NCBI GenBank assembly: GCA_018798825.1 | Contig: CP076355.1 | Span: forward strand, 898,001 to 962,000 | Length of the DNA stretch: 64,000 bases | Reading direction: 5' to 3' | Origin: Ochrobactrum sp. BTU1 | GTDB taxonomy: Bacteria > Pseudomonadota > Alphaproteobacteria > Rhizobiales > Rhizobiaceae | Shown here: piece by piece, positions 5,815 through 64,000 of the stretch | How positions within the stretch are numbered: position 1 is the first letter of the stretch | How the letters are laid out: each line of letters opens with the position of its first letter | The notes under the pieces: generated by a model | Databases searched by the model: none | Seen by the model: the letters and a program-made list of their open reading frames with translations, nothing else | Told to the model about the DNA's origin: nothing | Program-made: the position numbers and the translations under genes

Positions 5815-6146
5815 TTTTTTGAACGAAAGCCTTCGCCCAAGACAAGATGTTCCCCTAACATAGGCTCAGATACTGGATGTGTGTCAATATGGTTTGAACA
5901 GAGAAGAGCGAAATAACACGTAACATCGATATCTGAAGCAGAAATTTTTATCTAAATAATAGAGCAAAAATAGTGACTTAGTCCGATTAAAATATTTCTG
6001 GCGACAAACTTTCACCACCTTATGAGAATGAGCCAAAAATTGCTGCCAAGGCACGCTGGCGTCAGTATAAATTTCCTGTGAGCGCACTGGACATTGCACT
6101 CTGAAATGCATATTTTTCGGCTGCTCGCACAATGGTGTGCGGGTTT

Positions 6147-6302
6147 GTTCTCGGGGCGGGGTGAAACTCCCCACCGGCGGTATGAAGAGCGATCTTCGAG
6201 CCCGCGAGCGCCTGCAGCAAACGCCTTTTGAGGTATAGTTTCAGGGTCAGCAGATCCGGTGAGATGCCGGAGCCGACGGTTAAAGTCCGGATGGAAGAGA
6301 GC
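6147..6302 (+). ncRNA. FMN riboswitch (RFN element)
   Basis: The conserved RFN blocks are present in order: GGGGCGGGGTGAAACTCCCC (6153-6172), ACCGGCGGTA, AGCCCGCGAGCG, then GATCCGGTGAGATGCCGGAG, CCGACGGTTAAAGTCCGGAT and the closing GGAAGAGAG. It binds flavin mononucleotide and lies about 75 bases upstream of ribH2, so this lumazine synthase should be repressed when flavin is plentiful. Upstream of ribH2 the region also holds a small CCCGG...GGG hairpin and a candidate Shine-Dalgarno-masking sequence. Confidence 0.95.
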
Positions 6303-6338
6303 GAAAGAGCGTTAAACCCGGCTATTGCGCGGGATTGC

Positions 6339-58269: not shown

Positions 58270-58380
58270 GCTTACCGCTTGCGCCTCCTCCCATTGCGCG
58301 CGGTAAGTGTTCCCCTCTGGAGGTTTGCCTTTATGGCACCTTCATAACTTAGCCGGACTTTTTAGTCCGGCTCTTTTTTT
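58270..58380 (+). ncRNA. Predicted small RNA with an anti-Shine-Dalgarno loop (cuckoo/alpha-r14-like)
   Basis: CTTACCGC (58271-58278) pairs with GCGGTAAG (58300-58307), and GCGC inside pairs with GCGC, presenting CCTCCTCCC (58284-58292) in the loop. A perfect 9-bp terminator stem (AGCCGGACT / AGTCCGGCT, 58351-58372) and a run of T (58374-58380) close the transcript. A plausible promoter, TTGAAG (58235) - 17 bp - CATATG (58258), places the 5' end near 58270. No protein-coding frame of merit spans it. Anti-SD loop RNAs are known in Rhizobiales. The family call is inference. Confidence 0.65.
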
Positions 58381-62987: not shown

Positions 62988-63168
62988 CGTGCCCCTCTGT
63001 CTCAAGCCTGAGAGACTCGCATAGCTATAATGCTATACTTACACCTTCGGCGCAGGGTTTCCCCCGACTTTCCAGAGTTGCCTTACCCGTCTGCGGTTCC
63101 TTGTACCTGAGAGATTTCGGGCGATTTCCCCTTCGGTGGCTAACTTGCGTCAGCTCTCTCCCGCAGAC
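62988..63168 (-). ncRNA. Tandem glycine riboswitch upstream of gcvT
   Basis: Read on the minus strand, two glycine aptamers follow each other. Aptamer 1 (about 63085-63168) has GCGGGAGAGAGC, CCACCGAAGGGGAAATCGCC, ATCTCTCAGGTAC and GGAACCGCAGAC. Aptamer 2 (about 62988-63082) has CTCTGGAAAGTCGGGGGAAA, GCGCCGAAGGTGTAAG, GTCTCTCAGGCTTGAGACAG and AGGGGC. It lies 47 bases before the gcvT start. Glycine binding should switch gcvTHP on. Confidence 0.95.
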
Positions 63169-63594
63169 AAACAGTGACAGAACATTCTCGTAAAACGCAA
63201 CGCTCCATCACACGACATAAGTCACTTAGCTTAAACCGCTTCTGGTGTCATGTATAATTATTGTCACGAGACGACAATTCCCGTGGTTTTTGCGACAAAA
63301 ATCGATCTTTCCCGCAAGCACAAAAGAACCCTCTAAGGAAGCCTCTTATATTAGTGAATACCGCTGGACGTTTACGATCCATTAAGGATTATGGCCATTA
63401 AAGGCGCTCAAACTGGTGATTTGGGCAGTCGGTATGATGATTGTGATTATAAAATGACCAAGCTGCGCAAAAGCCATGCAATCGACAAGCTAAATTGCAC
63501 AGCAGCTATGCAAATCTGTCTCTCCACTTCCGAAATCATCGAGCCTATATGCTGTTCGCAACACAGAGAGATAAGATTTTACTAGGTGAGAGAA

Positions 63595-63741
63595 ATGAAC
63601 CTGATCCGCTCGTACAACAACTGGCGCCGCTACCGTAACACGGTAAATGAACTGAGCCGCCTGAGCCCACGCGAACTGAACGACCTTGGCATTCTTGCTT
63701 CGGAAATCCCGTTCGTTGCACGCAAGGCAGCTGCTCGCTAA
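63595..63741 (+). CDS. DUF1127 small basic protein (CcaF1-like)
   Basis: A 48-residue protein, MNLIRSYNNWRRYRNTVNEL..., with the family's Arg-rich first helix and the core LSRLSPRELNDLGI. The start has AGGTGAG upstream. Small DUF1127 proteins in Rhodobacter bind RNA and assist maturation of sRNAs encoded downstream; in Agrobacterium related proteins act on phosphate signalling. Here it is followed by an array of anti-SD-loop hairpins, the same arrangement as in Rhodobacter. The 400 bases upstream (63187-63594) hold its promoter and that of gcvT, and no gene. Confidence 0.92.
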   Translation: MNLIRSYNNWRRYRNTVNELSRLSPRELNDLGILASEIPFVARKAAAR

Positions 63742-63771
63742 TAGCGCCTCGAAAGGCACCCGCCTTTTTCT

Positions 63772-63937
63772 GGACCGCGACCCTTTAAACCGCGCGGTCC
63801 TCACAGTTTCCAAGGTTTTTTCCGGGGCGTTTTCCTCCCATTCCCCCGGTGACCGCAAGACCGGAACTTCTCCTCCCAAGCCGGTCTTACCCTAAATGAC
63901 ACCCGCCGCTCCTCCCGCGGCGGGTGTTGTTTTTTTA
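63772..63937 (+). ncRNA. Array of hairpins with CTCCTCCC-type loops after DUF1127 (CcsR/cuckoo-like sRNAs)
   Basis: Four successive stems follow the DUF1127 stop. A: GGACCGCG/CGCGGTCC (63772-63800), without the motif. B: CCGGGG/CCCCGG (63822-63849), CCTCCC in the loop. C: AAGACCGG/CCGGTCTT (63857-63888), CTCCTCCC in the loop (63870-63877). D: an 11-bp perfect stem (63899-63927), loop CTCCTCCC (63909-63916), then a T-run. The loops can pair with Shine-Dalgarno sequences. In Rhodobacter such RNAs are processed from the 3' UTR of a DUF1127 message. The number of mature RNAs here is unknown. Confidence 0.75.
63899..63936 (+). terminator. Terminator of the DUF1127-sRNA unit
   Basis: An 11-bp perfect stem, ACACCCGCCGC (63899-63909) with GCGGCGGGTGT (63917-63927), followed by TGTTTTTTT. 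It doubles as the last anti-SD hairpin: the loop and closing base read CTCCTCCC. Confidence 0.9.
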
Positions 63938-64000
63938 ACAACGGCTCCTGTTAAGACTAAATCGTTGGAACCGCTGTAAGTATTTGTTTTTACGCATTAC

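What the first reader, a model, noticed from the sequence alone, without database searches (positions are those of the whole stretch)
63595..63937. DUF1127 gene followed by three anti-Shine-Dalgarno hairpins
Directly visible: a DUF1127 gene, then hairpins B, C and D with CCTCCC, CTCCTCCC and CTCCTCCC in their loops, the last being a terminator. This arrangement is known from Rhodobacter CcaF1-CcsR and from the rhizobial cuckoo RNAs, where the loops bind ribosome binding sites or titrate regulators. The copy here has an extra leading stem (A) and two or three motif-bearing loops in one 3' UTR, so one message may give a protein and several sRNAs.
Basis: partly seen in the sequence, partly recalled or inferred. 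Interest (0 to 1): 0.75.

Follow-up and report, generated by a model that had tools for sequence, protein, structure and literature searches.

The report
DUF1127 gene with anti-Shine-Dalgarno RNA tail
A tiny bacterial gene ends in an RNA tail whose three loops are complementary to ribosome-loading sites of other messages; it is a member of an already described family, with a shared promoter box and two extra stems as its new details.

Summary
Window 63595-63741 encodes a 48-aa DUF1127 protein, and 63814-63932 is an ar14 ("cuckoo") RNA above Rfam's cut-off (71.3 vs 58.8 bits). Three hairpins carry UCCUCCC loops; the last looks like a terminator. Added here: (1) an exact match to the published LsrB/VtlR consensus GCAT-N3-TG-N3-T lies upstream of this gene and of 67 of 80 DUF1127 relatives (control mean 2.5); in this genome it precedes three of four short DUF1127 genes, five of six ar14 loci and one of three ar15 RNAs. 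(2) Stems A0/A precede a linker with AGUUU in 15 of 21 rows. (3) This copy is the most eroded of six: 0 of 3 loops keep CCUCCUCCC, against 16 of 16 elsewhere in the genome. Most likely a LysR-type activator drives one message giving a small protein and a 3'-UTR-derived sRNA that blocks Shine-Dalgarno sites. No expression data were available.

The parts
63495..63511 (+). LysR-type box TTGCACAGCAGCTATGC; its minus strand (63499-63511) reads GCATAGCTGCTGT, an exact match to the published LsrB/VtlR consensus GCAT-N3-TG-N3-T
   Evidence: consensus from a passage of PMC8844928
63545..63550 (+). probable -10 element CTATAT; start of transcription inferred near 63557
   Evidence: read; CTATAT at -75 to -30 in 37 of 80 relatives, CTATAT or a near variant in 51 of 80, no control run; inference, not mapped
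63584..63589 (+). Shine-Dalgarno AGGTGA of the DUF1127 gene, weakly paired with its own loops
63595..63741 (+). DUF1127 gene, 48 aa, stop TAA followed by TAG
   Evidence: in 19 sequences (window and 18 relatives) 30 variable codons change synonymously only, 5 change an amino acid
63751..63768 (+). stem A0, small hairpin just after the stop codon
   Evidence: 97.5% of cells paired but no both-sided changes
63772..63800 (+). stem A, leading hairpin without the CCTCC motif
   Evidence: 2 of 7 pairs with changes on both sides
63801..63816 (+). linker TCACAGTTTCCAAGGT with AGTTT at 63805-63809, candidate RNase E site
   Evidence: AGTTT in 15 of 21 and GTTT in 18 of 21 aligned rows (alignment); processing role inferred
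63814..63932 (+). ar14 / cuckoo RNA (RF02344)
   Evidence: 71.3 bits, gathering score 58.8
63819..63852 (+). hairpin B, loop motif UCCUCCC 63833-63839
63857..63888 (+). hairpin C, loop motif CUCCUCCC 63870-63877
63896..63937 (+). hairpin D, loop motif CUCCUCCC 63909-63916, with U-run: terminator-like

Best explanation
One transcript of about 380 nt starts near 63557 under a LysR-type activator of the LsrB/VtlR kind, which binds 63495-63511. It is translated into a 48-aa short DUF1127 protein. Its 3' UTR ends in an ar14/cuckoo RNA of three hairpins. The UTR is most likely cut in the AGUUU linker after stems A0/A. The released RNA of about 120-130 nt silences mRNAs by pairing its UCCUCCC loops with GGGAGGA-type Shine-Dalgarno sequences, in the way reported for NfeR1; some ABC-transporter and sugar-catabolism messages are candidate targets. 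Shown: gene, hairpins, family membership, covariation, and a conserved box at a fixed place. Inferred: which regulator binds, cotranscription, cleavage, target silencing.
For: Rfam ar14 above cut-off. Five helices pair in 97.9% of cells over 21 UTRs, 13 of 40 pairs with both-sided changes. Exact LsrB/VtlR consensus in the 200 nt upstream of 67 of 80 relatives; 66 of 80 within -130 to -75 of the start codon, control mean 0.59. With at most one mismatch, TTGCANNGCNGCTATGC has three places in 5.88 Mb, all ar14/DUF1127 promoters (the pattern was written from two of them). S. meliloti precedent: LsrB activates NfeR1 (ar14), whose aSD seeds silence ntrB (section 5 and passages of PMC10746234). 106 GGGAGGA-N4-11-ATG sites in the genome against 47 for a permuted motif. 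The nearest long reading frames run divergently upstream and convergently downstream, so the UTR serves no other evident message.
Against: No RNA data at all. The box also precedes nine DUF1127 genes with no CCTCCC within 260 nt of the stop, so it marks DUF1127 genes rather than cuckoo RNAs, and a fourth short DUF1127 gene of this genome (L020, 45 or 54 aa) has neither box nor array. 13 of 80 relatives lack an exact box (11 of these have a one-mismatch box in place; control mean 1.1, maximum 5). Only 4 of 14 GCATAGCTGNNNT sites in the genome lie at ar14, ar15 or DUF1127 promoters, and that pattern is not above its reversed control (14 vs 18). No LsrB/VtlR gene was identified in this genome. 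The window loops are shorter than in the other copies. Excess GGGAGGA sites partly reflect ordinary strong ribosome sites, and the 106 include an antisense match to an ar14 loop (L152) and a site counted twice (L162/L163).
Confidence: 0.7

Rival explanations
1. The hairpins only stabilise and terminate the DUF1127 message; no separate sRNA acts in trans.
For: D is terminator-like. Nothing here shows a separate RNA. Stems B and C are the weaker ones in this copy.
Against: Loop letters are kept while stem letters differ: 16 of 16 loops of the five other ar14 loci carry the same 9-mer (stems compared by eye). A stabiliser needs no fixed loop. Four of the six ar14 copies of this genome have no DUF1127 gene directly upstream.
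Confidence: 0.13
2. This copy is decaying. The protein is the selected product and the RNA in this lineage is losing function to the five better ar14 copies.
For: 0 of 3 loops keep CCUCCUCCC; stem B has a U-U mismatch where most relatives have A-U or a standard pair; lowest score of the six copies.
Against: C and D keep the 8-mer and B the 7-mer. 97.9% of cells pair over the orthologs. The nearest relative L028 keeps the 9-mer in C, and many other relatives also have only the 8-mer in D.
Confidence: 0.2
3. The loops mainly hold the DUF1127 protein or another RNA-binding protein, giving feedback on the gene's own message.
For: CcaF1 of R. [quoted passage not shown]
Against: Short DUF1127 proteins of A. 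tumefaciens act through the sensor kinase PhoR, and no RNA binding was found for YjiS (title and passages of PMC12501420). In 9 of 30 ar14 loci fetched from other genomes no DUF1127 frame lies within about 1.5 kb.
Confidence: 0.1
4. The sRNA has its own promoter inside the DUF1127 gene or UTR and is not cut from the message.
For: Three stand-alone ar14 copies of this genome (L009, L011, L012) carry a box 54-55 nt before the RNA, so ar14 can be a primary transcript.
Against: No exact box lies between the gene and the RNA here, I see no CTATAT-like -10 in 63742-63814, and the scan found no promoter-like site (it also misses the likely real promoter, so it is weak).
Confidence: 0.1

Closest known systems
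Rfam RF02344 ar14 / cuckoo RNA family (S. meliloti NfeR1)
   Same: Three hairpins with anti-Shine-Dalgarno loops, the last with a U-run; LsrB-type box in the promoter region
   Different: Here behind a DUF1127 gene, loop motifs shortened to 7-8 letters, two extra leading stems
R. sphaeroides ccaF1-CcsR1-4 ('CIN1' type locus)
   Same: DUF1127 gene followed by sRNAs and a terminator in one transcript (passages of PMC10253847); that CcsR loops bear CCUCC-type motifs is recalled
   Different: CcaF1 has 71 aa and an RpoHI/RpoHII promoter (same passages); here 48 aa and a LysR-type box; one three-hairpin unit instead of four RNAs
ar15 / AbcR sRNAs
   Same: Anti-Shine-Dalgarno RNAs, one of them under LsrB/VtlR in relatives (passages of PMC8844928, PMC9751625); one of three ar15 copies of this genome carries the same box
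   Different: Different Rfam family; the ar15 copy in this window has no exact box in 600 nt upstream
Short DUF1127 proteins of A. tumefaciens (SDPs, 47 or 48 aa)
   Same: Same short DUF1127 type by length (passage of PMC12501420)
   Different: The passages seen do not mention a 3' cuckoo RNA for them ('cuckoo' 0 occurrences)
6C RNA (RF01066)
   Same: Stems with C-rich loops; weak match, 33.6 bits
   Different: Below the cut-off of 47; not a member

Membership tests
Rfam ar14 (RF02344) | covariance model score at or above the gathering score | tested here: met
   71.3 vs 58.8 bits, model positions 1-123 of 123
Rfam ar14 (RF02344) | three hairpins, each with an anti-Shine-Dalgarno motif unpaired | tested here: met
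alpha-r14 as described in PMC10746234 (a described trait, not part of Rfam's criterion) | identical CCUCCUCCC in all three loops | tested here: not met
   0 of 3 loops; 7-mer in B, 8-mers in C and D. I file the RNA as ar14 by Rfam's criterion, as a diverged member
CIN1-type DUF1127-cuckoo locus | short DUF1127 gene directly followed by CcsR/cuckoo-like hairpins | tested here: met
CIN1-type DUF1127-cuckoo locus | cotranscription and RNase E processing (reported for ccaF1-CcsR) | not testable with these tools
   no RNA data; the AGUUU linker is only a lead
LsrB/VtlR regulon | GCAT-N3-TG-N3-T box upstream of the -10 element | tested here: met
LsrB/VtlR regulon | binding by, and dependence on, LsrB/VtlR | not testable with these tools
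   no regulator orthologue identified; a LysR-type gene lies beside the ar15 copy on C3 but was not shown to be LsrB
ar15 / AbcR (RF02345) | covariance model match | tested here: not met
   no ar15 match up to E 1 in 63541-64000

The most novel reading that the evidence does not exclude
In Rhizobiales, most short DUF1127 genes, ar14/cuckoo RNAs and an AbcR RNA form one LsrB/VtlR circuit built around anti-Shine-Dalgarno loops, with the small protein and the sRNA often made from one message. Effects ascribed to short DUF1127 proteins may then in part be effects of the RNA in their 3' UTR. In the Brucella/Ochrobactrum/Falsochrobactrum relatives, a leading A0/A module sets how much of each product is made.
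Probability: 0.33. Interest if true: 0.6.

Novelty: new member of a known kind. Interest (0 to 1): 0.4.

Why it matters
If right, one activator drives a small protein and a broad translation-blocking RNA from one message, and the same box marks other anti-Shine-Dalgarno RNAs of the genome. It gives a concrete caution for genetics: a deletion of a short DUF1127 gene that takes the 3' UTR with it, or changes its processing, removes two products. It also gives a simple testable prediction about which promoters respond to LsrB.

Tried and rejected
6C RNA: weak match below cut-off. ar15: no match at the locus. Avoidance of the own ribosome site as a general rule: the window type AGGUGAGAG pairs weakly with the loops (-7.1 to -9.7 kcal/mol), but the group L047/L050/L053/L054 has GAGGAG (-10.3 to -14.8), so there is no general avoidance (window and 15 loci chosen from the 80). 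Stem A0 as an early terminator: not found by the scan, and by eye the U-run is not kept in most relatives. Target enrichment: 30 of the 106 sites were fetched, all on contig C1; after leaving out two frames of 5 and 11 aa, one antisense match to an ar14 loop and one duplicate, 26 frames were scanned, of which 4 are periplasmic binding proteins. Of 4 window sites, one is a binding protein and one an ABC permease. I have no background rate for this genome, so I do not claim enrichment. An LsrB/VtlR gene within the 12 kb around the C1 ar15 copy: no LysR-like frame seen among frames of 180 aa or more, read by eye. A clean split 'short DUF1127 genes have the box, long ones do not' was my first reading; one search showed that L020 can start at 45 or 54 aa and has no box, so I withdrew it and lowered two odds slightly (best explanation 0.72 to 0.70, novel case 0.35 to 0.33).

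Literature: three searches answered (listings only). PMC4615179 (cuckoo family) and PMC8034643 (CcaF1) are not held. Budnick 2018 and a VtlR paper by a recalled DOI could not be opened. That VtlR controls three small DUF1127 genes in B. abortus is recalled, not read here; passages seen say that VtlR activates abcR2 (PMC9751625) and that the three proteins are linked to fucose utilisation (PMC12501420). Passages only were seen of PMC3927594, PMC10253847, PMC8844928, PMC12772402, PMC9751625, PMC8625941, PMC6234868 and PMC12501420; of PMC12218461 outline and passages; of PMC10746234 passages and section 5. I make no claim that the box result is absent from print.

Full report
What is there. The window lies in a 5.88 Mb genome of four contigs. 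At 63595-63741 lies a 48-aa DUF1127 gene (PF06568, 55.8 bits), and at 63814-63932 an ar14 RNA (71.3 bits, gathering score 58.8). Upstream, frames that read like gcvT, gcvH and gcvP run the other way (named by reading), with a glycine riboswitch; downstream a frame that reads like a major-facilitator transporter points towards the locus.

Anatomy. After the stop codon come A0 (63751-63768), A (63772-63800), a linker with AGUUU (63805-63809), B, C and D, and a U-run. The loops hold UCCUCCC (B) and CUCCUCCC (C, D), with UCCUCCC unpaired in the MFE.

Is the structure real? I aligned the window 3' UTR with 20 of the 80 loci (L028-L046 and L055; paralogues and more distant loci left out). Over 40 pairs, 97.9% of cells pair (93.7% shuffled, 38-48% with slid partners) and 13 pairs have both-sided changes (4.8 shuffled; 0 of 500 shuffles reached it). 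The structure came from the same alignment with one pair added, which favours it against slid versions, and the tool warns that shuffles ignore relatedness. Changes on both sides occur in A (2 pairs), B (4), C (1) and D (6), none in A0. By eye, A0/A are present in the Brucella, Ochrobactrum and unassigned Rhizobiales rows and in Falsochrobactrum L055, altered in L029 and L045, and absent in Pseudochrobactrum L046. The linker has AGUUU in 15 of 21 rows and GUUU in 18.

How common is it? 68 of 81 loci (80 relatives plus the window) have at least two CCTCCC within 260 nt of the DUF1127 stop. The 13 others are L029 and three Bartonella MAGs with one motif each, and nine Neorhizobium/Rhizobium-type loci with none. 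Across 101 genomes of the family, 97 have an ar14 match and 91 one over the cut-off; none of 14 control genomes does. Of the 30 loci fetched from that search, chosen by score, 21 have a DUF1127 frame within about 1.5 kb, and in nine (one weak, L113) it ends within about 45 nt before the RNA.

Copies in this genome. Six ar14 loci exceed the cut-off (in that loose search nine of 14 control genomes gave weak matches, none over it). Six DUF1127 genes exceed theirs, plus one weaker match. Two carry the array: the window one and C1:892179-892286, which has four hairpins. All 16 loops of the other five loci carry CCUCCUCCC; none of the three window loops does. The window copy is the most diverged, and its stem B has a U-U mismatch.

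Promoter. A published consensus for LsrB/VtlR is GCAT-N3-TG-N3-T (passage of PMC8844928). The minus strand of 63499-63511 matches it exactly, 34-46 nt before the CTATAT at 63545-63550. The consensus occurs in the 200 nt upstream of 67 of 80 relatives (random stretches of the same loci: mean 2.5, maximum 8 in 200 draws), and 66 of 80 have it between -130 and -75 (mean 0.59, maximum 3). Of 13 without an exact box, 11 have a one-mismatch box (control mean 1.1, maximum 5); the other two, L078 and L079, lie behind another DUF1127 gene. These relatives are not independent; no tree control was run. In this genome three of the four DUF1127 genes that can be short (48, 48 and 49 aa) have the box; the fourth (L020, 45 or 54 aa) and the three longer ones (L022, L023, L024, the last below the family cut-off) do not. 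Five of six ar14 loci and one of three ar15 loci have it within 600 nt (the whole window has 14 matches in 64 kb). Among the 30 ar14 loci from other genomes, 9 have it within 150 nt (0.65 shuffled, maximum 4), among them 7 of the 9 without a DUF1127 frame nearby. TTGCANNGCNGCTATGC, a pattern I wrote from these promoters, has with at most one mismatch only three places in the genome, all ar14/DUF1127 promoters; with up to three mismatches it has 861 against 635 for its reversed form. Against this: GCATAGCTGNNNT has 14 places, four at such promoters, no more than its reversed control of 18, and nine DUF1127 genes have the box with no CCTCCC within 260 nt.

How it most likely works. S. meliloti NfeR1, an ar14 RNA, is activated by LsrB and silences ntrB through its loops; it is described as Hfq-independent (section 5 and passages of PMC10746234). 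In R. sphaeroides, RNase E is involved in making the CcsR RNAs from the ccaF1 message (passages of PMC10253847 and PMC8625941). By analogy the window message gives a DUF1127 protein and an sRNA. Candidate targets are genes with GGGAGGA ribosome sites: 106 places in the genome, 47 for a permuted motif. Those looked at include binding proteins and, in the window, a PfkB-DUF2090 gene, a GFO/IDH/MocA gene, a binding protein and an ABC permease. The protein is under constraint: 30 of 35 variable codons vary only synonymously in 19 sequences, the window included. Whether it binds RNA or a sensor kinase is open; both are reported for relatives.

Verdict. It is a new member of a known kind. The additions worth keeping are the shared LsrB/VtlR-type box, the A0/A module, and the erosion of the loops in this copy.

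Noticed in passing
window 58270-58378 (+): An ar15 (AbcR-type) RNA, 65.3 bits, about 5.2 kb from the finding; no exact LsrB/VtlR consensus in the 600 nt upstream, unlike the C1 ar15 copy.
   Followed up: partly
window 6143-6306 (+) and 63084-63173 (-): FMN riboswitch, and glycine riboswitch ahead of gcvT-like genes.
   Followed up: no
L176 1501-1517 (C1:1172938-1172954): An LsrB/VtlR-type box lies upstream of an E1 dehydrogenase gene that reads like pyruvate dehydrogenase.
   Followed up: partly
L063, L065, L068, L076, L090, L104: Aurantimonas and Nitratireductor loci carry nine or ten CCTCCC motifs within 450 nt after a DUF1127 gene, spaced like repeated triplets.
   Followed up: no
L081, L083, L084, L086-L089, L091, L092: Neorhizobium/Rhizobium-type short DUF1127 genes with the box but no CCTCCC within 260 nt of the stop.
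   Followed up: no
L160 and L161 (C1:1385433-1385683): Two divergent genes, a periplasmic binding protein and a GFO/IDH/MocA oxidoreductase, both have GGGAGGAG ribosome sites.
   Followed up: no
L181 3496-4437: A LysR-type regulator gene lies about 100 nt from the ar15 copy on C3.
   Followed up: partly
L020 (C2:863909-864019, minus strand): A short DUF1127 gene (45 or 54 aa) with neither the box nor a CCTCC array.
   Followed up: partly
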